Made by a program: the position numbers and the translations under genes. This document shows, piece after piece, positions 1,881-64,000 of a stretch of 64,000 nt of DNA. The DNA lies in the NCBI RefSeq assembly GCF_008831285.2, contig NC_045144.1, positions 17,995,716 through 18,059,715 of the forward strand, read 5' to 3'. Numbering within the stretch: position 1 is the first letter of the stretch; each line of letters begins with the position of its first letter. The notes beneath the pieces are model-generated. The model searched no databases. It saw nothing but the letters and a program-made list of their open reading frames with translations, and had not been told where the DNA came from. The stretch comes from Nymphaea colorata (lineage: Eukaryota; Streptophyta; Magnoliopsida; Nymphaeales; Nymphaeaceae).

Positions 1881-2008
1881 GTCACATATGTGAAGATAAT
1901 TAAAAATTATGCATGGCTTTAGTTTAATATTCTTCTAATGCAATGTCACATAGGTGCAGATAATTAAAAATTATGCATCGCACTAGTTTAGTATTTTTCT
2001 AATGCAAC
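1881..2008. repeat. 64-bp tandem duplication
   Basis: Two adjacent copies start at 1881 and 1945 with GTCACATA, each containing GATAATTAAAAATTATGCAT and ending in TTCTAATGCAA or a one-base variant. They differ at about ten positions. Within each copy, ATAATTAAAAATTAT is nearly self-complementary. No coding potential. Confidence 0.8.
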
Positions 2009-3289: not shown

Positions 3290-6200
3290 AGACTGATAAT
3301 TCTTAAGCCTTTTCTTATAAAGAGGATTATCATTCAGGAAAATCATAGAATTATTGCACTTCAGTCAAATCTTTTAAATTATTGATGAATCTGTGATATA
3401 TACATCCAAGTTACTCCTCTTCAGCTTTTTTTTCACGAGGAAAACATCATTAGAAAGAGAAATTGCACTTAGGCACATCACCAAATTATTGATGAGGTTG
3501 TCGTATACATCAGTTTTCTCTATTTTTATTCGTATAGCGTAGTTAGTCGGACTAATAGACCGATTAAAGTTCTGTCAATTCTCATGGGCATTACTTATTT
3601 GGGTTGCAAATGGTAGATGTGAAACACTCTAGTTAATAGGTGTACTATTCTCCACCCAGGTGCCGAAGTAACATTAAACCTTGAAAGCAAGAGGACAAAA
3701 AAAATCAGCTTGGACCTCTTTAAAGTATCTTTTTCGCCTTTTTTTTCTTAAGCTTTTTAATGAACATCATTGGATGAAAAATCATAGGACTATTGAACTT
3801 GAGCACATCTCCAAATTATTGATCTACAGACTGTGGTATACACGTTGAAAGTGTTTTCTTGTGCTTAGGCACATCTCCAAAATTATTGATGAGGTTGTCG
3901 TATACATCAGATTTCTCTTTTTTGAATTCTACAAGCATAGCATAGCTGGTGGGACTAATAGGCCGATTAAAGTTTCATCAATTCTCATGGGCATTACTTA
4001 CCTGGGCTGCACTCTAGTTAATGTTAACTTCGGCACCTAGGTGGGGACTGGTACACCAATTCGTAGAAGCATAGCTAGCTGGTCGGACTATGGTATACAC
4101 GTTGAAAGTGTTTTATTGGGCTTAGGCACATCTCCAAATTTATTGAGGTTATCGTATACATCAATTTTCTCTTTTTTTTATTCCTAGAGGCACAGCATAG
4201 CTGGTAGGATTGATAAGCCTATTAAAGTTTCGTCAATTCTCATGGGCATTACTTATCTGGGCTGTAAATAATAGATGTGAAACACTTTAGTTAATGGGTG
4301 TACCGCTCTCCACCCAGGTGCCGAAGTAACAATAAAACCTGAAAGCAAGGGGACAAAAAGATGAGCTTCAACCTCTTTAAAGTATCTTCTTCACTTTTTT
4401 TTTCTTAAGCTTTTTAATGAACATCATTGGAGAAAACATCTTAGAATTATTGAAGTTAAGCACATCTCCAAATTATTGATCTACAAACTATGGTATACAC
4501 ATTGAAAATGTTTTATTGGCCTTAGGCACATCTCTAAAATTATTGATAAGGTTGTGGTATACATCAGCTTTTTCTTTTTTGATTCCCAGAGGCATAGCGT
4601 AGTAGGTCGGACTGATAGGCCGATTAAGTAACATTAAACCCTGAAAGCAAGGGGAAAAAAAGATGAGTTTCGACCTGTTTAAAGTATCTTATTCGCCCTT
4701 TTTTTTTCTTAAGCTTTTTAATTAACATCACCAGAAAAAACATCTTAGAATTGTTGAGTTAAGTGCATCTCCAAATTATTGATCTACAGGCTATGGTAGA
4801 CACGTTGAAAGTGCTTTATTGTGCTTGCATCTCTAAAATTATTGATGACGTTGTCGTGATTTCTCTTTTTTGATTTCTACAAGCATAGCATCGCTGGTGG
4901 GACTGATAGGCCGATTAAAGTTTCGTCAATTCTCATGGGCATTACTTACCTAGGCTGCACTCTAGTTAATGTTAACTTCGACACCTAGGTTGGGACTGGT
5001 ACACCCATTCCTAGAAGCATAGCTAGCTGGTCGGACTATGGTATACACGTTGAAAGTGTTTTATTGGGCTTAGGCACATCTCCAAATTTATTGAGGTTAT
5101 CGTATACATCAATTTTCTCTTTTTTGATTCCTAGAGGCATAGCATAGCTGGTAGGATTGATAAGCCTGTTAAAGTTTCGTCAATTCTTATGGGCATTACT
5201 TATCTGGGCTGTAAATAATAGATGTGAAACACTTTAGTTAATGGGTGTACCGCTCTCCACCTAGGTGCCGAAGTAACAATAAAACCTGAAAGCAAGGGGA
5301 CAAAAAGATGAGCTTCAACCTCTTTAAAGTATCTTCTTCACTTTTTTTTTCTTAAGCTTTTTAATGAACATCATTGGAGAAAACATCTTAGAATTATTGA
5401 AGTTAAGCACATCTCCAAATTATTGATCTACAAACTATGATATACACATTGAAAATGTTTTATTGGCCTTAGGCACATCTCTAAAATTATTGATAAGGTT
5501 GTGGTATACATCAGCTTTTTCTTTTTTGATTCCCAGAGGCATAGCGTAGTAGGTCGGACTGATAGGCCGATTAAGTAACATTAAACCCTGAAAGCAAGGG
5601 GAAAAAAAGATGAGTTTCGACCTGTTTAAAGTATCTTATTCGCCCTTTTTTTTTCTTAAGCATTTTAATTAACATCACCAGAAAAAACATCTTAGAATTG
5701 TTGAGTTAAATGCATCTCCAAATTATTGATCTACAGGCTATGGTAGACACGTTGAAAGTGCTTTATTGTGCTTGCATCTCTAAAATTATTGATGACGTTG
5801 TCGTGATTTCTCTTTTTTGATTTCTACAAGCATAGCATCGCTGGTGGGACTGATAGGCCGATTAAAGTTTCGTCAATTCTCATGGGCATTACTTACCTGG
5901 GCTGCACTCTAGTTAATGTTAACTTCGACACCTAGGTTGGGACTGGTACACCCATTCCTAGAAGCATAGCTAGCTGGTCGGACTATGGTATACACGTTGA
6001 AAGTGTTTTATTGGGCTTAGGCACATCTCCAAATTTATTGAGGTTATCGTATACATCAATTTTCTCTTTTTTGATTCCTAGAGGCATAGCATAGCTGGTA
6101 GGATTGATAAGCCTATTAAAGTTTCGTCAATTCTCATGGGCATTACTTATCTGGGCTGTAAATAATAGATGTGAAACACTTTAGTTAATGGGTGTACCGC

Positions 6201-8100
6201 TCTCCACCTAGGTGCCGAAGTAACAATAAAACCTGAAAGCAAGGGGACAAAAAGGTGAGCTTCAACCTCTTTAAAGTATCTTCTTCACTTTTTTTTTCTT
6301 AAGCTTTTTAATGAACATCATTGGAGAAAACATCTTAGAATTATTGAAGTTAAGCACATCTCCAAATTATTGATCTACAAACTATGATATACACATTGAA
6401 AATGTTTTATTGGCCTTAGGCACATCTCTAAAATTATTGATAAGGTTGTGGTATACATCAGCTTTTTCTTTTTTGATTCCCAGAGGCATAGCGTAGTAGG
6501 TCGGACTGATAGGCCGATTAAGTAACATTAAACCCTGAAAGCAAGGGGAAAAAAAGATGAGTTTCGACCTGTTTAAAGTATCTTATTCGCCCTTTTTTTT
6601 TCTTAAGCATTTTAATTAACATCACCAGAAAAAACATCTTAGAATTGTTGAGTTAAATGCATCTCCAAATTATTGATCTACAGGCTATGGTAGACACGTT
6701 GAAAGTGCTTTATTGTGCTTGCATCTCTAAAATTATTGATGACGTTGTCGTGATTTCTCTTTTTTGATTTCTACAAGCATAGCATCGCTGGTGGGACTGA
6801 TAGGCCGATTAAAGTTTCGTCAATTCTCATGGGCATTACTTACCTGGGCTGCACTCTAGTTAATGTTAACTTCGACACCTAGGTTGGGACTAGTACACCC
6901 ATTCCTAGAAGCATAGCTAGCTGGTCGGACTATGGTATACACGTTGAAAGTGTTTTATTGGGCTTAGGCACATCTCCAAATTTATTGAGGTTATCGTATA
7001 CATCAATTTTCTCTTTTTTGATTCCTAGAGGCATAGCATAGCTGGTAGGATTGATAAGCCTATTAAAGTTTCGTCAATTCTCATGGGCATTACTTATCTG
7101 GGCTGTAAATAATAGATGTGAAACACTTTAGTTAATGGGTGTACCGCTCTCCACCCAGGTGCCAAAGTAACAATAAAACCTGAAAGCAAGGGGACAAAAA
7201 GGTGAGCTTCAACCTCTTTAAAGTATCTTCTTCACTTTTTTTTTTCTTAAGCTTTTTAATGAACATCATTGGAGAAAACATCTTAAAATTATTGAAGTTA
7301 AGCACATCTCCAAATTATTGATCTACAAACTATGGTATACACGTTGAAAATGTTTTATTGGCCTTAGGCACATCTCTAAAATTATTGATAAAGTTGTGGT
7401 ATACATCAGCTTTTTCTTTTTTGATTCCCAGAGGCATAGCGTAGCAGGTCGGACTGATAGGCCGATTAAGTAACATTAAACCCTGAAAGCAAGGGGAAAA
7501 AAAGATGAGTTTCGACCTGTTTAAAGTATCTTCTTCGCCCTTTTTTTTTCTTAAGCTTTTAATTAACAACACTGGAGAAAACATCTTAGAATTGTTGAAG
7601 TTAAGTGCATCTCCAAATTATTGATCTACATGGTAGACACGTTGAAAGTGTTTTATTAGGCTTAGGCATATCTCCAAATTTATTGATGAGGTTATCGTAT
7701 ACATCAGTTTTCTCTTTTTTTATCACTAGAGGCGTAGCGTAGCTGGTTAGACTGATAGGCATATTAAAGTTCCATCAATTCTCATGAGAATTATTCATTT
7801 GGGCTACAAATGATAGATGTGAAACACTCTAGTTAATGGATATACCACTCTCCACTCAAATGCCGAAGCAACAATAAACCCTAAAAGCAAGAGGGAAAAA
7901 ATATGTGCTTCGACCACTTTAAAATAACTTTTTTGTTTGTTTTCTTAAACTTCTTAGTGAACGTCATTGAAGAAAAAAATCTTAGAATTATTGAACTTAA
8001 GCACATCTCCAAATTATTGATCTAGAGACTGTGGTATACACGTTGACAATGTTTCTTTTCTGTTTTCTTAAGAGTTTTCTCATAAACCAATGAAGAGTAT
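3290..8100. repeat. Tandem array with ~947-bp higher-order units of three diverged monomers
   Basis: Taking TGATCTACA followed by the CTATGGTAGAC region as phase marker, units begin at 3830, 4780, 5727, 6674 and 7622, which gives periods of 950, 947, 947 and 948 bp. Each unit holds three diverged versions of one ancestral monomer, spaced about 245, 399 and 303 bp (measured at CTATGGTA-like anchors 5738, 5983, 6382 and 6685). Shared landmarks are GGCACATCTCCAAA, AGGCATAGC, GATAGGCCGATTAA, CAATTCTCATGGGCATTACT and GAAAGCAAGGGGA. Equivalent monomers in neighbouring units are almost identical, while monomers within a unit differ strongly, so whole units were amplified recently. Degenerate monomers flank the array (about 3290-3829 and 7622-8100). 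No coding frame, RT or transposase is visible. Confidence 0.9.
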
Positions 8101-9029
8101 TCATTTGTCTTTTGTTTGCAAATAATGCATGACAAACGTCAGGAGGGAAGAAGCGTGCCCATCAATTTTTTTCTCTTTTTTTGGAGCCCACTCATGACCT
8201 CATGCTTTATATTAGAATACGCCACTTGATCTCGTGGTTTTGGGACGTCTTCTTCTTCGTACCAATAAATATTAATATTATATTCATATAGATTGTAGTC
8301 TTACGATCTCGATCAATAATTCATAAAGTACTTACGTAAAGTTACCTTTTTTGAAAAATAATAATAATAGCAGTTTGTATTTTGACTAGAGTATGACAAT
8401 TTTGTATGTAAGATCTTAACCATCGATCAAGTTGATTGAACAATTCATAAATTTTAATATTAAAAACATTAGCCTGAATCAGCCTGTTTGAATAGAATAT
8501 ACCCGTTTCTTGATTGGATAAGGATTAAGGGGCCGACTCACTGATTCTGAAAAATCATTAGACTCTTTTTGTCAAATTGCCCAAATAGAGGTTGAATTTG
8601 TTGAGTGGTTCTGATTTTGGATAGTGTTCAATATTGTTAAAGTTTTTAGATTTTGAAATGTGCCAAAATATCATTTTTTTATATTTTTATATAGGACAAG
8701 TAAAATTTTTAAAAATTCACATGTAAGTTTTTATTTTTTATATTTTTTTTTATGTAGAACCAGGGCTCACCCCTGCTTACAAAGTTAAAGATGACATTAG
8801 TTACATATGGATTCTTCAAAGATTAGCAAATACATTCGCGAGGTTACGATAGAGGCACTTCTAATGCATTCAGTAACAAACCATTTAATGAATCTACCTC
8901 AATCTTTATAACATAGTGTTTCATGAATCTACTTATTATCAAAGAACATATTAGCGATCTTCCACATCTCAAGTTCTGACTTAACCTCTAATGTATTTAG
9001 CCATCCCAAAAAAAAAAAAAGTATTAGTT

Positions 9030-12112: not shown

Positions 12113-12659
12113 GGAAGAGGCGGAATCGAGCTAGGGAGGCCGAGAAGCTGAGTTCTTGTTGTGATATTCTTTGTCGTGCTTAGATCTGAGAAAGGTTATT
12201 CGTTGAAGGAGTGTTTTCTGCTGAAGCTTCGCTTGATTTTTAGCTCAGGGAACTGTGGGCAGCTTCATTCGCTGAACGACTAATAAGCTGCAGTGTTCTT
12301 CTTTTCTCCTTCGACGCGCCATTTTTTATTTCTGTTCTCGATTCATTCGGCTTTGAAAGTGGAAACCTTGTTTTGAGTCCTTGAAGGTTCCCTTTGGCCC
12401 ATATTGCGAGTTTTTTGGTAAAATATTATTAGCTTTCCCTACTGAAAGACTCAACATTAATCTTCCACATTGACGAACGTAATATCTGTTTCCTCTCTCC
12501 CACCTCCCCAATATTCTGCTTTTCTTCAATAAATTTCTGGCTTAGAGGACCTACCCATTCATCTCTTTAAGTAGAGAACCATTTCTTCTACCTATTTGTT
12601 GACTTCACATTTGGTTAAGCCTATACTAGTTGAAAACTGATATCTATTTTGGCTATTTA

Positions 12660-15600
12660 ATGGCGGCGTCTCTCCAATCTGGCATCCTCCGAGTACCCAA
12701 GGTTCCGGGGTTAAGCTCAGAAAAGTTTTCTTCTCTTTATTCGATTTCATGTAGCCGGATTAGCTCTGCAGCCTCTTTGGCCCATGCAAAAGAATTGAGG
12801 TATAGTAAGAAGAGAGAGAAAGTCAATGAAAGAAGAGATTTGAGTATCCATTGCGAACAGCAATCTGCCGTTGCATTCATTGAGAAATTTAATGATGAAC
12901 GGGAACAGGCAGGCGAAAGTGTGCGGCAATTAAGCTGTGTCATGAAGTTTGGTGGATCATCGGTTGCCACTGCCGCTAGAATGAGGGAGGTCGCTGACCT
13001 GATCCTTAGCTTTCCTGAGGAGAACCCTGTGATTGTTTTGTCAGCGATGGGGAAGACAACTAATAAACTTCTAGAAGTGAGTAAGTTGTTCATGTCTTGA
13101 ATATTGTTCTTTAAGTGCTCATTTCATTTGAACCATTCTTGAAATTACGTGCCTGAACTTCAATTATTAAGTTTAGTCAACGATTCTTTCTGTTCGTTTT
13201 TCTGTATTCAATGCAGCAGCCATGAGGATTCACCTGCCTTTACATGAGTTGGTTGTGCTAGTTGTTCTTCTTCTTAAGTCATTAATGCCGTTTTGCTTCT
13301 GCTAGGCTGGAGAAAAAGCTGTTTGCTGTGGTGTTAACAATGTCTCTGCAATTGACCAATTGCACTTGATAAAGGAATTGCATTTAACGTAAGAATTACG
13401 CATCCTTCTTATAGCATATAGTATCCGTATCCAGAAACCACGTGCCCAGTCTCATGGTATCTGTTATGCTTGTGTTTCTTTAGGACTGTTGATGAGCTTG
13501 GAGTAGCCAGATCAACAATTTCAGGTAATTGTGATGCATGATGCACTGCTATTTAAGTACTCCAGTTTTTAGCTTCAAGAGCTTAAATTTTCTGATCTTC
13601 TCTGTTTCTTTTGGTTTTGTCAAAAGGAATGTTTCCATGGATAAATATGACTAGCAGCATTGTTATTTGGAAAAAGTTATGTAAATTTCCAAAATGACAC
13701 TAAATTTAGACCAGTGCTTGCCTACTAAAATTTGAAAGAAAGAGGAAAATGGCAATTATGGCTATTGACACACTACATTATTCTTCATAAACTTCTCTAT
13801 GAGTATGTTTTTTTTCTTGTTTGATGCAATACTTAATTTACAAGTTATGGTTGGTTACTCAGAACTGCTCGAGGAGTTCGAACAACTGTTGACTGGAATT
13901 GCTTTGATGAAAGAGATGACACCTCGCACAAGAGACTATTTAGTCTCCTTTGGAGAGCGAATTTCAACACGTATTTTTGCTGCATATTTGAATAAGATGG
14001 GTGTCAAAGCCCGGCAAGTATGTTATCTTTCAGCTTTACATTTAGTCCTTCTAAACAAGCTTGTGCAACATGTATGACTTCTTAGATTAATTTGACTTGG
14101 TACAGAATTAGATGGTAAATATTTATTTCCATTTAATTTCTTCTGTGGATTTTGAATGAGATTATGACCAAGTACTTTTGTTCTGCCTAGTGTCGACCAT
14201 GTGATGTCAAGTAGTTGTTCCATTTCTAACTGGTACAAACTTCTGTTCTATCAAGCTGATATGGAGAAAGACAAACATCTGAAGATGTCTGTGTAACTTT
14301 GTCTCATCATAAGCAAATTTACCTCCTACTTTTATTTCCGCCATCGCCTTTTAAAGTAGAGTAGTCTAAAATATGGCAAATGCGTAAGGTCATAAGATGT
14401 CTTAACCAGTTGATACACTCGAAGAATGTGTTGGCAAAAAGGTCATAAAATGCCTTCAACCATTTAATGCATCTAACGGGTCTATGTTGGCAAAAAACTT
14501 ACAAGTTTTGACAACATACTATATGTTTATGGATGGAGTGAACTGCAATGACTATCTAGTGTATCTAAAGGGTCTATGTTGGCCAAACACTTACAAGTTT
14601 TGACAACATATTATATGTGTATGGATGGAGAGAACTGCAATGACTATGTGTATTTTATGCTCCAGCTAAAGTTTTCTTTCAGAATTAGCATGCAATTTCT
14701 ATTCTGCAATTTTCTGGAGTTATTTCCCATATGTGAACACAAACCATAACAAAATCAGGAAAAAGTGAAAAGCCACTCAGAGTGAGTAATCGAGTAGTAG
14801 GCTAGTAGCAGGCAAGCAGTTGTAGCTAATAAAGTCCCCAACAGCCAAAAACCAAAACTGATCTAAGACTGGTTATCCTTCTGAAAGTGAGTGCCGACTA
14901 TGGTTTAATTGCTATAGAGCTTGGTATAAGCTTAGACAGATTTGCTGTGTTCGTGCTGTCTAATGTGCACATTGAATGAGTTTTAGCTATCCTTAGTTCC
15001 AATTTTTTTGTTTTAGCTATCCTTAGTTCCAATTTTTTTGTACTTCTTCTTTAGAACTTCATGAGATTCAACTATGTAGAAGTCACTCTTCAATAACTTT
15101 CCTCCATAGTTGGTCGTCCTTATGCTTTGTTCTAGTATTATGGCAGTGCTGATTGGTGCAAGAATAATATTTTTGCAGTATGATGCCTTTGATATTGGTT
15201 TCATAACTACGGATGAATTCACAAATGCCGACATACTTGAAGCAACTTATCCTGCTGTCGCAAAAAGGCTGCATGGAGATTGGATTAATGATCCTGCAAT
15301 TCCTATAGTAACTGGGTTTCTTGGAAAGGTATTTTATTAGTAAATACAATGCTCTTCTTGTTAGAGTTTGGATCTCTTTAGCAAGTTTTGCTTTGTTTAT
15401 TGTTCCAGTGAAACTGTTTGTTTCTTGCTGTTGATAGTCAGTATGTGATGCACTCTTTGCAGGGTTGGAAATCTTGTGCTGTCACAACTTTGGGTAGAGG
15501 TGGCAGTGACTTGACGGCCACCACTATTGGCAAAGCCTTGGGCTTAAAAGAAATTCAGGTTGATTTTGAACTTCATGCTCCAACTAAACCATGGATCTAT

Positions 15601-18451
15601 TGCTGTCTTTCTGGGCGTGTGATCAGCAATTCTTTGATATTCTGGACTTTCATTAGCACACGTTCAGTGATACCTCTCTCATTTTCAAGATAACCTATTG
15701 CCTATGGTTTTCCATCACTAATTATTTTAAACCATTAGGATTCCTGTGTGAATAGGTTTTGTTCCCTGTCTGATGTACATTTTGCAACAGGTTTGGAAAG
15801 ACGTTGATGGGGTGCTAACATGTGATCCTCATATTTGTCCACAAGCAGAACCAGTACCATTTTTGACATTTGAAGAAGCTGCGGAGCTTGCGTATTTTGG
15901 TGCTCAGGTTTTCATTGTTTAATATCTTATTTCACATTTAAATTGAATATACAATAACGTCAACTCCTTGATGTTTTACGAATTATTCCCTAATAAAGAA
16001 TGAATATGCAAGGCTGCAAGCAATACATCAGTTTCAAGTTGTGAATTGGTTACACAGTATCCCTTGTTTAGCTTGAAGACAAGCTTGCAAATGCCGCCCC
16101 TTACATGATATTTATTGGACTGAAAGCTATTTTACTTTTCATTTTAGGTTTTACATCCACAATCTATGCGGCCTGCTAGAGAGGGTGATATTCCTGTAAG
16201 AGTTAAGAACTCTTATAACCCTAAAGCTCCTGGAACCCTCATTACAAAGACGAGGGATATGAGTAAGGTTGTAATGAGCTTACCGTTCCACTTCATGTCA
16301 GATGCCTGACTTACGAAATTTTTTATACATTCTGTGACTTCCAAGCTCGATGCTTTAATTCTGTTGGCAGGTCATATTGACGAGTATAGTTTTGAAGAGA
16401 AATGTAACCATGCTGGATATCGTCAGCACCAGAATGCTAGGTCAATTCGGTTTCCTCGCAAAGGTAAGTTTCTTCAGATAGATGGTTACTTGCTCTCCCC
16501 TACTTGTGTTTGTGGGTGACCTTAGCTGAGTAACTTCTAGAAGCCCATGAGAAAAATACTTTCCTGTTGCTTAGCTAATTTTTGAATTGGTATAAGTGGG
16601 GCAGGATTCTAGGCCTTTTGTAGCATTGTTCGTGCTTATTTATTGATCCATTACTGTGTTCTATGATAGGTTTTTTCCATCTTTGAGGATTTGGGCATCT
16701 CAGTTGATGTCGTGGCCACTAGTGAAGTCAGCATTTCATTGACATTGGACCCTTCAAAACTATGGACCAGGGAACTAATACAACAGGCAAGTTTGTTATG
16801 AGATCATTACTCTATTTTTACTCAGTATCAGCATTTACAGTCCCATATAATTTTTTTTTTTTTTGGTCACTGAAGCATGCAATCATTTACAAGAACTCTG
16901 ATGAAAACTTCTTTTGGTATGCTATTCTTTTTTTTTTTTTCAAGTGATTCAACTATAATTCCAGTATGTTTAAGCGGCATATCTTTCTGGCAAAAGCTAT
17001 TATGTGAACTATTGTTTAACTAAAGGCTATGCTTGATCAATTTGGTTCTTGATTTCCTTTTAGGAGCCTAGCGCTGCAGTGGTCACCATTTTCCATTTCC
17101 CCAAATCTTTTTGCTCTGCATGTGCTGATTCTCATTGTATAGGCATGCTTCTTTACGTCCACAACTGTGGGTTACATGCACTAAAAAGAGGCGTGCAACA
17201 AAACATCTACATAATTTCTTTGCAAATGCACATGTAGTTTCTTAATCTGTCTTGAAGAATGGGCTTTAAGTGCCCTCATTCACTCTGTTTACTTGATTTC
17301 TTTTCCTTTAGATTGAAGTGAACGGAGATGAGTCTTCCTGTATCTTTAACAGTCGACTGAAACTTCTTTTTTCTTGAATTTGCTAATGTTCGTATTGTTA
17401 ACTGATTCGTTTCCTTGACGTAGGAACTGGACCATGTGGTAGAAGAACTTGAGAAGATCGCAGTTGTACATCTTCTACAAAATAGGTCAATTATCTCTCT
17501 TATTGGGAACATCCAGAGGTCATCATTGATACTAGAAAAGGTCAGTCTTTTTTGCATGATGAATTATTGGTTTCACCGTGCTCAAGGTTGCAACTGCCAT
17601 TGGCTGCTTTTTTCAGCGGGCATTAACACTGCAAAGTGTCAACCTTAGGTTCCTCTGGTGTTGCTAAACTTGGCATATGTGAAGTGTTCCTAGCTTCTGT
17701 TTAGTTTGCAGATATTCAAGATGCATGTAGATACAGTAGCCATTATAACCGCTTTCCTTCCTCCACTGCTTGCACTTCCCCACTTTAGGCTTCAACCCAT
17801 TATCTTCCACCTACATTCTAAGATCATGTGCACATTTTTGTCAGCCTTTTGTGTCCAACCATGATATTTAAATAACAAAAAAACAAACTTAATTCACACA
17901 AAAATGCAAAGTTAATGCACACAGTTGGGAAAAATGTGGAACACGTGAAAAATACATTTTGGATAATTAACATACAAAAATAATATACGAAACATTAAAA
18001 CGAATATGAAAAAAGGCAACAAATAATGCTTTTTAAAGAAGTTGTGTCCACGTGTCGGTGTGTCGAACATATTTCACCCAGGCTGTGTGTGTTTGTAGCG
18101 AGACATAGTGGTTGGATTTGGTGGGAGTACATTCCAGTGATGTCCCTGCATTTTGATTTGGCCAGGCATTCTACGTCCTACGGAGGAATGGCGTGAACGT
18201 CCAGATGATCTCTCAAGGAGCATCAAAGGTTCTCTCTCTCTCTCTTTCTCTCTCTTTCCCTCTCTTTCCCCATGCCTTTGACAGCCATTGGTTTCATCAA
18301 ACAGGTGAATATCTCCTTGATAGTGAATGACAGTGAAGCAGAACAGTGCGTGCAGGCTCTGCACCAAGCCTTTTTTGACACACCGGAGCTGACTGGCCAT
18401 GAGGACCTCAATGGCTCGGTTGACGGGTACAGAGACTCTCGATATTCCTAA
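12660..18451 (+). CDS. AK: Aspartate kinase, monofunctional, plastid (13 exons, 577 aa)
   Basis: Phosphorylates aspartate with ATP, the first step towards lysine, threonine, methionine and isoleucine; plant enzymes act in plastids and the monofunctional class is lysine-feedback-inhibited. Exons: 12660-13076, 13306-13388, 13484-13524, 13845-14017, 15179-15328, 15463-15558, 15791-15907, 16148-16267, 16371-16463, 16670-16786, 17424-17540, 18166-18228, 18305-18451. They join in frame to 1734 nt. Residues 1-90 are Ser/Arg/Lys-rich, as in a transit peptide. KFGGSS (96-101) is the kinase signature; [25 protein letters not shown] and DGVLTCDP follow in the core. Two ACT domains lie at about 410-470 and 485-555, including [13 protein letters not shown]. 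There is no homoserine dehydrogenase part. The ATG at 12660 is the first in a leader lacking upstream ATGs in its exonic sequence; TTG upstream is not a plausible start. Intron 10 uses a GC donor. Length fits the family (about 540-570 aa in Arabidopsis). Confidence 0.95.
14471..14653. repeat. 92-bp tandem duplication in aspartate kinase intron 4
   Basis: Copies begin at 14471 and 14563 with ATCTAA(C/A)GGGTCTATGTTGG and share CTTACAAGTTTTGACAACAT, TATGGATGGAG and ACTGCAATGACTAT. They differ at a handful of positions. A shorter related piece, TGTTGGCAAAAAGGTC, lies just upstream near 14430. Intronic, with no effect on the coding sequence. Confidence 0.85.
14981..15040. repeat. Perfect 30-bp tandem duplication in aspartate kinase intron 4
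   Basis: Two identical adjacent copies (14981-15010 and 15011-15040), each starting TTTTAGCTATCC and ending AATTTTTTTG. Identity implies a young replication-slippage or repair event. It lies about 140 bp before the exon 5 acceptor. Confidence 0.95.
16787..17423 (+). other. GC-AG intron (aspartate kinase intron 10)
   Basis: Exon 10 ends with codons for Leu-Ile-Gln-Gln (CTAATACAACAG), directly followed by GCAAGT. Exon 11 starts after GACGTAG with codons for Glu-Leu-Asp-His-Val. This junction restores the family-conserved [19 protein letters not shown] segment. The nearest GT, inside GCAAGT, would add 4 nt and break the frame. CAG/GCAAGT matches the usual strong GC donor context. All other introns of the gene read as GT-AG. 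Confidence 0.85.
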
Positions 18452-20553
18452 TTCATGCTATCATGCATCCCTGGCTCTGTTGTTGTATGCCGTAGGCGTG
18501 GCACCGCCTAAGGTACTCATTTTGTCCTTGCTGGAGTCGACTCCCAGCGTTTATTTGCGCAATGTAGAACCCATCTTGTGCTTAAAGCAATATATTTCCT
18601 GGCTTGAAAATGTCACTGTTCGCACTTTTTTTCCACCAGCAAAAGCTATCGCACATAGTCGTCCGACCTTGATTGATGAAAACATAGGGGGCAGTGGCGG
18701 TGGTCCGTTTCGCATCCGCTTACTAAGCAGGTTGGGGCCTTTGACTCTAGTCGTGGTTCAAGTTTCATGGGTATGGTTCAAGTTTCGCTTTGCCTCCGGA
18801 TCTAGTCATTTCAATGCTATAGGTGTACAACTTGGAACCGTGCTTAAAGGGCTCTATAGTTTCTCTCTAGATGTTCATGTTTCCTCGATTCATGTTCAAA
18901 AAACCCAAGCTTTAGTACATTAGGCGTTCGAGGTAAAGATGATTTAATTTGTATCGGACGCAAACAATGGTCAGCTTTTCAACGGAACCAATCCGCAAAA
19001 CCTTTTTCATAGGCAAGCTGAGAAAATCGGGGTCAGCTAGATTTTCACTATTAATATTAATAGTAAAATGTATAATAAAAAATTGCATGGAGTTAAGGAG
19101 AATCTGGGCCGTGGGTGGGTTAGGGTATGAGAAGAAACTACACATTGACATCTCTCAATCAACCCTTCTCATCTCATTCCTTCATTTGTCTTGTTCATCA
19201 GAAGTTGTCATTTGAGTTGTTTGGATTCTATTAAAAACTGAGTTATCTGAAGTACCTCCAGGATCGAACATTTGACCTCCCTCAGTCTGAAAAGAGGCCT
19301 CAACTCAAACCACTTTTTGGTGATTAAACTCTTGCTGCCTTCACCTTCAAAAGTCAGCATGATGGTTATTAAGCTCACATTTTTGTCTCACTATTTATTT
19401 AGAAAAGAACAGAGATTGTTTCTTGTTCGTTTAGCATGCATCTCTCTCTCCCTTTCTTTATATATATAGCCTTAAAAGTTGTGTGCTCTTAATTTAAACC
19501 ATGCGCTGTTGAACACGAAATTTTGTCGACCATCGGGTTACTGTTCATGGCTTGGTGCCCATTTCATTATATTGACTTTCTCTCCGTTCGTTGTCCTACG
19601 AGTTTAAAAGCACCAATTAATGACAAACTGACGTCTGGTACTAATATTGCCTTTCACTCCGAATCTTAATCAAAGGGCGTCACTAATTTCTGCGGCTGTG
19701 GAGATGATGCAGAGAACTTTCTCCTGGAATCAATCAACTGTGGCATGAACCCCGCCCTCCTTGTATGATCAATCATGCCTATGGCCAAACCAGTTAGATC
19801 CCTGTAAAAGTTGCTCCTTCCAAGGTGGGGTTTTCGTGGGGTTTTCCTCCACTCAAGAACAAGAAAATGTTAATCGACAAGTCCTTGTGTGCGTCCATGT
19901 GTTAACGCATGTATATGCCCACTCATTTAGGTACGTGTTATCTATTGCAACAACTGAACTGGCTTTTGCTCGATAAATGAAGACTGTCAGGGAAGTTTCG
20001 TACCGACAACATGATCTCGATGGTTCCAGGAAATTTTCGATTTTTATTCAAATTCAGGAAGTCGGATTTTATAAGAAAGATAGCTTGCAATTAGTGATCG
20101 GATGCGGATATGAGAAAAGTTTTTACTAGTCTTACTGAAACTGCTGGACATCCGATCGGCACCTGAGGCTGATTATGGCCCAAAAAATCAAAAGTAAAGA
20201 AAAAACGGATATGGTATTGCAATTTTACAGATTCGTACCCGAATCCAAGTTAAAATTGGCATGTCTTGATAGTGAGTGAGATACAGTAACGATCATATCC
20301 AGGAAGCAACCCATCTGGACATCGACATCCGTGATGGCCACAGAAGGTGAGACGAGAGCCTGATTCTAGCTGTACAGTAAATGTTTAAGGGCAATTGCCG
20401 TAGATGAATGCTCGAATATCGACATGGAATCCATGCTAGTCCATGATTGTTAAGTCTATATATAAATTGAGTAGAAGCCGCCTGAAGAAGGGCCGAGCCT
20501 CTTCACCCTTCCCCCCCCCCCCTCCCCCTGCTCTCAAGGTTTAAGGCTGCTGC
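18452..20553. other. 3' flank of aspartate kinase and intergenic DNA
   Basis: The first few hundred bases probably carry the 3' UTR of the kinase; no clear poly(A) signal was assigned. The remainder has no recognisable gene. The 174-codon open frame at 18399-18923 overlaps the last kinase exon in another frame and resembles no known protein. A near-duplicate GGTTCAAGTTTC pair occurs near 18760-18785. A C14-like tract lies near 20511-20522. Confidence 0.5.
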
Positions 20554-61177: not shown

Positions 61178-63649
61178 TTACCAAAAATCTCCACATGAGC
61201 AGACCCCATCCCTGAAATGGTGGAACCTACTAGAATCCCTCACTGTAATATCCCTTCCTACTATCTTTGATATCAACTTGATGGCTACATGACAATCTGC
61301 ACATGCACGTAAGTTCTTTATCACTGTAATTGGTGATCCTGGAGGTGTATTAATGAGAGCAAATGCAACAGCTAATTTCTCACTGTGGTACCGCAGGGCC
61401 TCAATTTTAGCTTCTTCCTTGATTCTATGAAGAACGCAGCTCGTATCAGGCTTGAAGCCCATCCATATCATTTTCTGATGAAGCATGTCTAATGTTGCTT
61501 TTACCTCTTCCATCTGTGGACAGGAATCATCGTTAGCAGAAAATGAATAAGTTTTCTGCTTAATCACCACCCAACTGTATGCTGGCTCCTTAATGAGTCC
61601 TCTACCCTTCATGGACTTTTTCACATTGGCAACATCTTCCCATCTCCCTGCCGCTGCATAGATGTTCGACATGGCAATGTAAGGGGAAGCGTCTCTAGGT
61701 CCTATATGGAACAATTGATCTGCAGTTCTCTGTGCCAGTTGTGGATTACTATGGATCTTGCATGAGTTTAAAATTGATGACAACATAATTTCATCTGGTT
61801 CAAAAGGCATGTCATTTATTAGTTTCTCTGCATCATCAAGTTTTCCTATTCGGCCCAAGACATCAACCATGCAAGCATAATGTTCTCGCCTGGGATGTAT
61901 ACCATAAATTTTACTCATAGAATTGAAGACGTAAAATCCTTCATCTGCCATTCCAGCATGACTGCAGGCAGAAAGCAGACTCAGGAAGGTGGCTGAATCC
62001 GGATACGCTCCCAACTTCAGCATTTCATCAAAAAGATCCAAAGCAGCCTTTCCACACCCATTCTGCGCATAAGCAGAGATCATAGAATTCCATGAGACGA
62101 TGTTTCTGTTAGGCATCTCCTTGAAAGCTAACATGGAATACTCGATAGAACCACACTTTGCATACATGTCAAGAAGTGCACTCCCTGTGAACACATTGGA
62201 CATGAATCCAGATTTAAGCATGGCTGAGTGGACTTGCCTTCCTAAATCGAGCAATGCTAAACTTGCACAAGCACTCAGAATACTAGAAAATGTCGCCTGA
62301 TCCGAGTGGATTCCCAACATTCGCATCTCAGAGAAGAATTGCATGGCTTTCCCATAAGAGCACTGCTGTATATATCCGGAAATAAGTGATGTCCATGAAA
62401 CCGTGTTCAAATCTTTCCTCCCCCTAAACAAGCTCTCTGCAATCTCCAAGTTTCCACATTTAGCATATAGGTCAATTAACGCATTGCAAACTGAAATCTC
62501 AGACTCGGCCGAGGTTATGATAGCTTGAGCATGGACCTGCTTACCAACATTCAGAGCCGTCGAATTCGCTAACATGCTTAATATAGTAGCAAAAGGGTAC
62601 TGTTTAGGATCGAAGCCAGCAAATTGTAATTTCCTGAAGAGATTGAAAGACTCTTCCCACTGGCCATCCCAAGCATAGGAAGTGATTACAATATTGTATG
62701 AAACACAGTCCCTTTGAGGCATTTCGTCAAAAAGCAGTGTTGCATCACCAATTTCATCACTCTTTACATACATATCAAGCAATGCATTGCTGACAAAAAC
62801 ATTCCACTCATAATTCATCTTGACCACGCAGCCATGAATCTGCACTCCAAGGCCAACATCGCCAATAACTGTACAAGCTGCAATGACGCCGGCGAATGTG
62901 AACTCGGTGGGCCTCAAACCAGATTTTTGAAGCTCTAGGAAGAGAACCAACGGTTCCTCTGCAATCCCATTCTTAGTATAGCCTGCAATCATCGCATTAA
63001 ATGTCACGCAATCTCGCCGAGGCATCTGATCCAACAATTGGCGCGCACAACTCAGAAGCCCGGATTTACAGTAAGAATCAAGCAGCGTGTTAGCTACAAG
63101 GAGGGTGGAACCATACCCGAACTTTACCACGAGGGAGTGAACCTGACGAACACTGTTCGATTGCCCACCAACATTGCAGGCTGACAACAGGGTGGTGAGA
63201 GTGACACGGTCAGGCTGCTGGTCAGACCTTCTCATCTCTGAAAAGAGGCCAAAAGCTTCTCCAGTCTCGCCGGACTGCGCATGCCCGGCCATCATGACTG
63301 TCCATGTGATCAAGTTGCGGTCCGTGGCGCGGTCAAAAAGCCGCCGTGCTTCACAGACATCGCGAGAAGTCACGTAGCCAGAAATCAACGTATTCCAGGA
63401 GATAACATTTCTTTGAGCCATTTCCTCGAACAGTTTGCGTGCTTGGGAGAGCTCCCCATCTTTTACGAGGCAGTCGATCACATAGTTGAGACCATAGATT
63501 TGTGGGCAGAAACCAGTTTTTATCATGTGAGAGTCTACATGGTTGGGGTGACCTGGGTTATGGACTGAGGGCCTTATAGAGGTCCTGGTAGCAAGATAGG
63601 TCCGGGAAAAAGCGAAAGAATGGCGGAAATCCACTCCAAAAAATTTCAT
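61178..63649 (-). CDS. DYW-class pentatricopeptide repeat protein (823 aa, intronless)
   Basis: PLS-type PPR proteins bind organelle RNA, and their DYW domain deaminates C to U. Residues 1-50 are basic, Ser/Arg/Phe-rich and non-acidic, as in a mitochondrial or plastid targeting peptide. About 17 PPR motifs cover residues 51-618 in P-L-S order (for example [36 protein letters not shown]). E/E+ follows at about 619-690, then DYW at 690-823 with the zinc and catalytic set HSE (756-758), CADCH (783-787) and CSC (817-819). The protein ends Asp-Phe-Trp instead of Asp-Tyr-Trp. I take the ATG at 63649; the open frame runs 18 codons further up but only to a TTG. From memory it is most like the Arabidopsis At2g01510 type; a search would settle this. 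Confidence 0.95.
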
Positions 63650-64000
63650 GAGAACATAGAAAGAAGCAGACGACAATGAGTTGCTAAGTGACCTGTAGGC
63701 CAATATAAATGGATCTTGGGAAAAACTTTTCCTGTTTGCTTTTCTCTTTTGTTTCTGTTTTCTTGATCAGTTGGGAGGAGGCGAAGAGCCGCAAACGCAT
63801 TTCGTGAAAGCCTTTGGAAGTAGGCCGTCTGATTTTATAAGTTTTTGTAGTAAACGATCATCTCAAGATCTTCAAAATGACATTACTTCCAAGTCCACTT
63901 GAAACATCTTTTCAAGTCAAGTTTCAGTGTGTTATTGTTTTTAGACTACATCTTTCAAGTCAAGCTTTAGTGTGTTATTTTTTACTACAAATGATAGCAA
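63650..64000. other. 5' flank of the PPR gene
   Basis: Upstream leader and promoter of the minus-strand PPR gene. A CTTTTCTCTTTTG-like pyrimidine tract on the plus strand (63738-63752) would give a purine-rich leader. A near-duplicate TTCAAGTCAAG(T/C)TT(T/C)AGTGTGTTATT occurs at about 63912-63939 and 63955-63981. No further gene before the window ends. Confidence 0.45.

What the first reader, a model, noticed from the sequence alone, without database searches (positions are those of the whole stretch)
3830..7621. Higher-order tandem array: ~947-bp units, each of three diverged monomers
Unit starts at 3830, 4780, 5727, 6674 and 7622 give periods of 950, 947, 947 and 948 bp. Inside each unit three related monomers (about 245, 399 and 303 bp) differ far more from each other than from their counterparts in neighbouring units. 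This is the logic of centromeric alpha-satellite higher-order repeats, yet it sits 5 kb from a housekeeping gene. Single degenerate monomers flank it, suggesting an old monomeric cluster from which one three-monomer block was amplified recently.
Basis: seen in the sequence. Interest (0 to 1): 0.7.

Follow-up and report, generated by a model that had tools for sequence, protein, structure and literature searches.

The report
SINE-seeded local higher-order tandem array
A short stretch of plant DNA holds four near-identical blocks, each made of three older, differing copies of a dead mobile element plus its flanking DNA; it looks like a small, locally grown tandem repeat whose build-up by unequal crossing-over can still be read, not a centromere.

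Summary
Four ABC units lie at 3820-7621 of a plant genome (probably Nymphaea colorata); in register the periods are 960, 947, 947 and 948 bp. Same-type monomers in different units are 93-100% identical, different types 74-89%. Older single monomers flank the array. The genome searches found the unit at this locus only.

Each ~400-bp monomer is a decayed tRNA-derived SINE (~200 bp) plus adjoining locus-specific DNA. Dispersed SINE copies show A and B boxes and, in 7 of 29, strong target-site duplications. Array copies share an 8-bp deletion in the B box that 0 of 29 dispersed copies share, so one insertion was amplified in place. C lost ~100 bp of SINE; A is a deletion-inversion derivative.

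Units 2 and 3 are hybrids, left like unit 4 and right like unit 1 (33 of 34 diagnostic sites fit; one site of another class does not). This points to unequal crossing-over inside the B-monomer SINE.

The logic resembles alpha-satellite HORs, but this is a SINE-derived tandem array, a kind known in animals; SINE-related repeats also occur at Arabidopsis FWA. Function is untested; probably none.

The parts
3300..3423 (+). Old flank copy of the non-SINE segment X, without a SINE
   Evidence: Local alignment to 7940-8060: 53/63 identities, score 57 vs shuffle maximum 27 of 500; to 3424-3530: 60/70 with 15 gap columns, score 36 vs maximum 31
3424..3819 (+). Left flank monomer (ML), single old copy, 82-83% to B monomers
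3530..3729 (+). SINE in the left flank monomer (approximate ends)
   Evidence: alignment with dispersed copies; positions read
3820..4779 (+). Unit 1 (A1 3820-4088, B1 4089-4476, C1 4477-4779)
4780..5726 (+). Unit 2 (A2 4780-5036, B2 5037-5423, C2 5424-5726); inferred hybrid
5727..6673 (+). Unit 3 (A3 5727-5983, B3 5984-6370, C3 6371-6673); inferred hybrid, 99.6% to unit 2
6674..7621 (+). Unit 4 (A4 6674-6930, B4 6931-7318, C4 7319-7621)
7622..8054 (+). Right flank monomer (MR, 7622-8018) and the X piece that follows it
7728..7929 (+). SINE in the right flank monomer (approximate ends); A box at 7735
4186..4386 (+). SINE in B1 (corresponding B2 5133-5333, B3 6080-6280, B4 7027-7227), approximate ends
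   Evidence: alignment (B1); positions read; exact A boxes at 5140, 6087, 7034
4193..4323 (+). Interval of the inferred unequal-crossover point (unit positions 374-504), inside the B-monomer SINE
   Evidence: 21 of 21 ABBB sites at or left of its start, 12 of 13 AAAB sites at or right of its end
4018..4061 (-). Inverted SINE-body segment in A1 (also 4966-5009, 5913-5956, 6860-6903)
   Evidence: 44-nt inverted repeats, 73-82% complementary to the B monomers
4588..4632 (+). C1: SINE head joined to the later SINE body at AAGT; about 100 bp lost, including the B-box region
12630..13100 (+). Reading frame with the start of an amino-acid (probably aspartate) kinase; context, not part of the array
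   Evidence: PF00696 AA_kinase, E 1.2e-07, residues 103-150

Best explanation
This is a small SINE-derived tandem array with higher-order structure, grown in place in apparently non-coding DNA of a plant chromosome. Inferred order: (1) a short local sequence (X) was duplicated; (2) one tRNA-derived SINE inserted beside it and decayed, losing 8 bp of its B box; (3) the SINE+X segment (~400 bp) was duplicated several times; (4) one copy lost ~100 bp of SINE (C) and one was remodelled by deletion, inversion and a jump into a second SINE head (A), perhaps by microhomology-guided template switching; (5) the ABC trimer was duplicated; (6) unequal crossing-over inside the B-monomer SINE made a hybrid unit and a further event copied it, giving U1-hybrid-hybrid-U4. 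Shown: SINE identity, one shared insertion, three tiers of identity, hybrid pattern. Inferred: the order of steps 1-3, template switching, and the absence of a selected function.
For: SINE: 37 of 40 scored matches (59 candidates) lie outside the query itself and this array, 18 of the 37 starting at query base 25-27; together hit contigs C1-C14. A box TRGCNNAGYNGG (recalled consensus) exact in 16 of 29 dispersed copies, within one mismatch in 19; B box 46 bp on, exact in 5, within one mismatch in 14 of 29. Strong direct repeats at the two ends in 7 of 29 vs mean 0.18, maximum 2, in 300 re-pairings. One insertion: the aligned array copies (ML, B1, MR) share an 8-bp deletion, which 0 of 29 dispersed copies share in full, and 5 private substitutions; A1-A4 and B2-B4 read the same across it. 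Locality: 9 of 23 matches and 22 of 27 are at this locus; the other 14 and 5 fall, within a few bases, in the SINE part. Hybrids: of 42 variable events, 34 are diagnostic and 33 fit one switch point; 0 of 20000 label permutations were as good. In the shifted register three inner copies are 99.05-99.79% identical, the edges 95.1-95.8% (left) and 97.3-97.9% (right) to the others.
Against: The three array SINEs are 69-72% identical to the dispersed consensus, and dispersed copies average 56% to each other, so the family is old and its ends are approximate; 10 of 29 copies do not come within one mismatch of the A box and 22 of 29 show no strong target-site duplication. No target-site duplication was established for the array's own SINE. 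One variable site (unit position 542: U1=U2, U3=U4) does not fit a single crossover, nor does the AAAB site at 231. A1 differs from A2-A4 by 6.2-6.6% but B1 from B2-B4 by only 1.0-1.3%, so more than one exchange or conversion is needed. Junction microhomology depends on the donor chosen (j1 3 or 0, j2 6 or 0, j3 3, j4 5 or 3, C 4 or 3 bp), so template switching is only suggested.
Confidence: 0.85

Rival explanations
1. Centromere-type or other functional satellite: the array belongs to a genome-wide satellite family with HORs and serves chromosome structure.
For: HOR logic: inter-unit identity far above inter-monomer identity; homogenised centre and more diverged edges.
Against: The searches found the unit only here; about 4.8 kb in all; a kinase reading frame lies 4.6 kb away.
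Confidence: 0.03
2. Several independent SINE insertions next to one another, later homogenised.
For: L013 holds two SINE copies about 700 bp apart, so neighbouring insertions occur.
Against: The array copies share an 8-bp deletion that is seen in 0 of 29 dispersed copies, and all monomers share the flanking X.
Confidence: 0.04
3. Assembly artefact: unit number inflated or collapsed by the assembler.
For: Four units at 97-99.6% identity are hard for short reads; no reads could be examined here.
Against: The units differ by 42 variable events, 33 of them in an ordered pattern, unlike random error. If the genome is N. colorata, it was assembled from PacBio RSII reads (PMC7015852, passage). The copy number in the plant may still differ from four.
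Confidence: 0.05
4. Gene-derived repeat: each monomer carries a duplicated minus-strand exon (81-bp stretch between acceptor-like and donor-like sites).
For: Five copies with one open phase between splice-like signals.
Against: The same stretch is the body of a dispersed tRNA-derived SINE; 27 codons is too short for an open phase to mean much.
Confidence: 0.02

Closest known systems
SINE-derived satellites (sSats) of squamate reptiles (PMC10702118; abstract, passages and Discussion seen)
   Same: Tandem repeats made from portions of SINEs, often few units, incomplete homogenisation, mostly independent origins, unequal recombination proposed; an alternating di/trimeric pattern is mentioned for one snake.
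   Different: There the units are SINE portions and favour subtelomeres; here the unit includes non-SINE insertion-site DNA, forms a three-monomer HOR and lies at 18.0 of 25.5 Mb on its contig. The L017 array (6 x 136 bp, first unit extending into the SINE head) fits the squamate anatomy better.
SINE-related tandem repeats at the FWA promoter of Arabidopsis (passages of PMC5155521)
   Same: Plant SINE-related repeats in tandem at a single locus near a gene.
   Different: FWA repeats lie in the promoter and are methylated through siRNAs; here the array ends about 4.6 kb before a kinase frame, and methylation, siRNAs and expression are unknown.
Long tandem arrays of Cassandra TRIM retroelements (PMC7215508; abstract and section list seen)
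   Same: Non-autonomous plant retroelement with a pol III promoter in tandem arrays; recombination proposed.
   Different: Cassandra has LTRs with 5S RNA sequence; here tRNA-type boxes and no LTR was seen.
Alpha-satellite higher-order repeats (recalled, no call)
   Same: Diverged monomers within a unit, near-identical units, diverged edge copies.
   Different: Very long centromeric arrays of one family against one 5-kb locus; here the monomer is a SINE plus flank.

Membership tests
tRNA-derived SINE (the element inside each monomer) | Dispersed copies with a common 5' end | tested here: met
   37 matches beyond the query and this array, 18 starting at query base 25-27
tRNA-derived SINE (the element inside each monomer) | Pol III A and B boxes at tRNA-like spacing | tested here: met
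   A box exact in 16 of 29, B box within one mismatch in 14 of 29, spacing 46. In an earlier set 3 of 15 had an exact A box and 2 of 15 one mismatch; random positions gave 0.0 and 0.01
tRNA-derived SINE (the element inside each monomer) | Target-site duplications | tested here: met
   7 of 29 strong vs maximum 2 in 300 re-pairings; not established for the array's own SINE
tRNA-derived SINE (the element inside each monomer) | LINE-related 3' end and a partner LINE | not tested
   No partner was sought
SINE-derived satellite or tandem array | Head-to-tail repeats derived from one SINE | tested here: met
SINE-derived satellite or tandem array | Amplification to many loci or long arrays (needed for 'satellite' proper) | tested here: not met
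   One locus, four units; hence 'array', not 'satellite'
Higher-order repeat (architecture) | Inter-unit identity well above inter-monomer identity | tested here: met
   93-100% vs 74-89%
Centromeric satellite | Family present at many centromeres | tested here: not met
   Unit found at this locus only; CENH3 association not testable
FWA-type epigenetic SINE repeats | siRNA-directed methylation controlling the adjacent gene | not testable with these tools
   No methylation or small-RNA data. CpG observed/expected is 0.55 in the units, 0.71 before and 0.89 after, and 0.50 in 12630-20000: inconclusive

The most novel reading that the evidence does not exclude
The array is a copy-number-variable, siRNA-methylated SINE repeat that tunes the kinase gene beside it, an FWA-like epigenetic element in an early-diverging flowering plant, kept in motion by crossing-over inside its own SINE copies.
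Probability: 0.05. Interest if true: 0.65.

Novelty: new member of a known kind. Interest (0 to 1): 0.4.

Why it matters
It shows at base level how a dead SINE and its insertion site can become a higher-order tandem repeat: insertion, duplication, rearrangement, trimer, hybrid units. Large satellites have usually erased such early steps. A second array of the same SINE family on another contig (L017) suggests that the route was taken more than once. The locus is short enough to be typed in populations, so the unequal-crossover model can be tested directly.

Tried and rejected
Exon-duplication idea: an 81-bp minus-strand stretch with splice-like borders and one open phase was dropped once the same stretch proved to be SINE body. 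Rfam at gathering score gave 0 matches in the window and ARAGORN 0 tRNAs, so neither tool recognises the tRNA-like head. Centromere-satellite reading: dropped, unit found only here (these searches score best candidates only). Multiple-insertion reading: dropped. CpG depletion as a methylation proxy: inconclusive. First A-box test: only 3 of 15 copies exact and 5 of 15 with 3-4 mismatches; three of those five (L007, L009, L010) belong to one local duplication. Internal X duplication: inside B1/C1 it rests on 23 of 25 bases over one 26-column stretch, and the comparison 8018-8200 with 7622-7720 only equalled its shuffle maximum (31 vs 31). The 29 dispersed copies are 32 aligned minus L031, L036 and L037, dropped as local duplicates; 26 of the 29 were found because they resemble L013. 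One of the 29 (L050) has a different, partial gap at the 8-bp site. A genome search with X alone, and one for more arrays like L017, never got an answer, so the uniqueness of X rests and the number of SINE arrays in the genome is unknown. Literature searches listed no report of this array and no named SINE family of this plant; that says nothing beyond those listings.

Full report
The window lies at C7:17995716-18059715 of an unnamed 407.8-Mb assembly with 783 contigs. Size and contig count fit Nymphaea colorata (409 Mb, 804 scaffolds, 14 pseudo-chromosomes, PacBio RSII; passages of PMC7015852). The eleven contig lengths shown among C1-C13 are 18-44 Mb; those of C2, C4 and C14 were not shown. 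Chromosome 1 and 2 lengths implied by passages of PMC9601493 (about 43.1 and 35.0 Mb by my division of figures) are near but not equal to C1 (44.0 Mb) and C2 (over 35.16 Mb). The species is therefore an inference.

Self-BLAST gives lags of 960, 1907 and 2854 bp over the array, and TRF with long periods gives 3666-7657, period 947, 4.2 copies, 97%. In one register the units start at 3820, 4780, 5727, 6674 and 7622, so the first period is 960, not 950. Same-type identities are A 93.4-99.6, B 98.4-99.2 and C 96.7-100%; between types 74-89%, or 80-88% for A over collinear parts. Older single monomers lie at 3424-3819 and 7622-8018, each with a further X piece outside it.

What the monomer is. Of 23 genome matches to one unit, 9 are at this locus and 14 elsewhere, all 14 within a few bases of one part of the monomer; a flank monomer as query gives 22 of 27 at the locus and 5 elsewhere, again in that part. 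A dispersed copy as query gave 40 scored matches of 59 candidates: itself, two in this array and 37 others, 18 of which begin at query base 25-27. together touch contigs C1-C14. The aligned copies show TAGCATAGCTGG, an exact match to the pol III A box (recalled consensus TRGCNNAGYNGG): exact in 16 of 29 copies, within one mismatch in 19, and a B-box position 46 bp on, exact in 5 and within one mismatch in 14 of 29. In an earlier set of 15 copies 3 were exact and 2 had one mismatch, against 0.0 and 0.01 at random positions. Seven of 29 copies have strong direct repeats at their two ends (13 of 13 bp in L023), against a mean of 0.18 and a maximum of 2 in 300 re-pairings. I read this as a tRNA-derived SINE family. 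It is old: copies average 56% pairwise identity and 69% to their consensus.

One insertion. The three array copies used in that alignment (left flank, B1, right flank) lack the same 8 bp in the B box, which 0 of 29 dispersed copies lack in full, and carry 5 private shared substitutions; A1-A4 and B2-B4 read the same across the site, while C lacks the region. All monomers also share stretches of the non-SINE X segment, which shows traces of an older internal duplication (23 of 25 bases, score 35 against a shuffle maximum of 22). So the SINE most likely arrived once and was multiplied together with its insertion site. The damaged B box makes pol III transcription of the array unlikely (inference).

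Rearranged monomers. C lacks about 100 bp of SINE between two AAGT motifs (AAG in one possible donor). A lacks 18 bp, then carries a 44-bp inverted piece of SINE body (73-82% complementary to B), then a second partial SINE head (seen), then X. Junction microhomology is 3, 6, 3, 5 and 4 bp with the best donors but 0, 0, 3, 3 and 3 with the worst. Random junctions average about 0.75 bp each, and sums of 15 or more came up in 0.035% of 20000 draws, but that null used one donor per side while I chose the best of several, so template switching is only suggested.

How the units arose. There are 42 variable events among the four units. Of those that single out U1 (ABBB), 21 of 21 lie at unit positions 11-374; of those that single out U4 (AAAB), 12 of 13 lie at 504-937. 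That is one misfit in 34, and no permutation in 20000 was as good. The other 8 events are U2-only (3), shared by U2 and U3 (3), a three-state site, and one site at 542 where U3 goes with U4 and not with U1; the last does not fit a single switch. The main pattern, U2 and U3 U4-like on the left and U1-like on the right, is what one unequal crossover between U1 and U4 of a two-unit ancestor yields, with the breakpoint at window 4193-4323 in the B-monomer SINE. Cut in that register, the three inner copies are 99.05-99.79% identical, while the left edge is 95.1-95.8% and the right edge 97.3-97.9% to the others. A1 is 6.2-6.6% from the other A monomers but B1 only 1.0-1.3% from the other B monomers, so a further exchange or conversion is likely. 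There are thus at least three tiers of age: monomers, the first ABC duplication, and the recent hybrid copies. Absolute ages are not given, because no mutation rate for this plant was found.

Recurrence. L017 (C13) holds a separate 6 x 136-bp array of the same SINE body; only its first unit extends into the tRNA-like head. This matches the anatomy described for squamate SINE-derived satellites (Discussion of PMC10702118).

Comparison. SINE-derived tandem repeats are documented in reptiles (PMC10702118: abstract, passages, Discussion) and tabulated for salamanders, Xenopus and mouse in PMC9659126 (passages). In plants, passages of PMC5155521 describe SINE-related tandem repeats at FWA silenced through siRNAs, PMC7215508 describes Cassandra arrays (abstract), and PMC7004042 LTR-retrotransposon-derived satellites (passages). 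The window array is a new member of a known kind; its points of interest are the higher-order structure, the inclusion of insertion-site DNA and the readable history. A role in controlling the kinase gene 4.6 kb away is untested and, on present evidence, unlikely.

Noticed in passing
L017 (G000 C13:9440300-9443300), locus 1189-2000: Separate tandem array of the same SINE body, six copies of 136 bp at about 80% matches; only the first unit keeps the tRNA-like head.
   Followed up: partly
L035, L036, L037 (G000 C7 at about 36.7, 23.3 and 10.0 kb): Three SINE stretches identical over the aligned part and about 13.3 kb apart at the very start of the contig, suggesting a recent 13-kb tandem duplication near a chromosome end.
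   Followed up: no
L007, L009, L010 (G000 C1: 809-830 kb): Three loci within about 20 kb that share long stretches (up to 2.2 kb at 81%) with the SINE inside: an older local segmental duplication.
   Followed up: no
window 61178-63703 (-): Single open frame of 841 aa with PPR repeats, E motif and DYW deaminase domain, the type of an organellar RNA-editing factor.
   Followed up: partly
window 1881-2007 and 14471-14647: Two further small direct duplications (64 bp and 92 bp, about two copies each), the second about 1.4 kb beyond the kinase reading frame.
   Followed up: no
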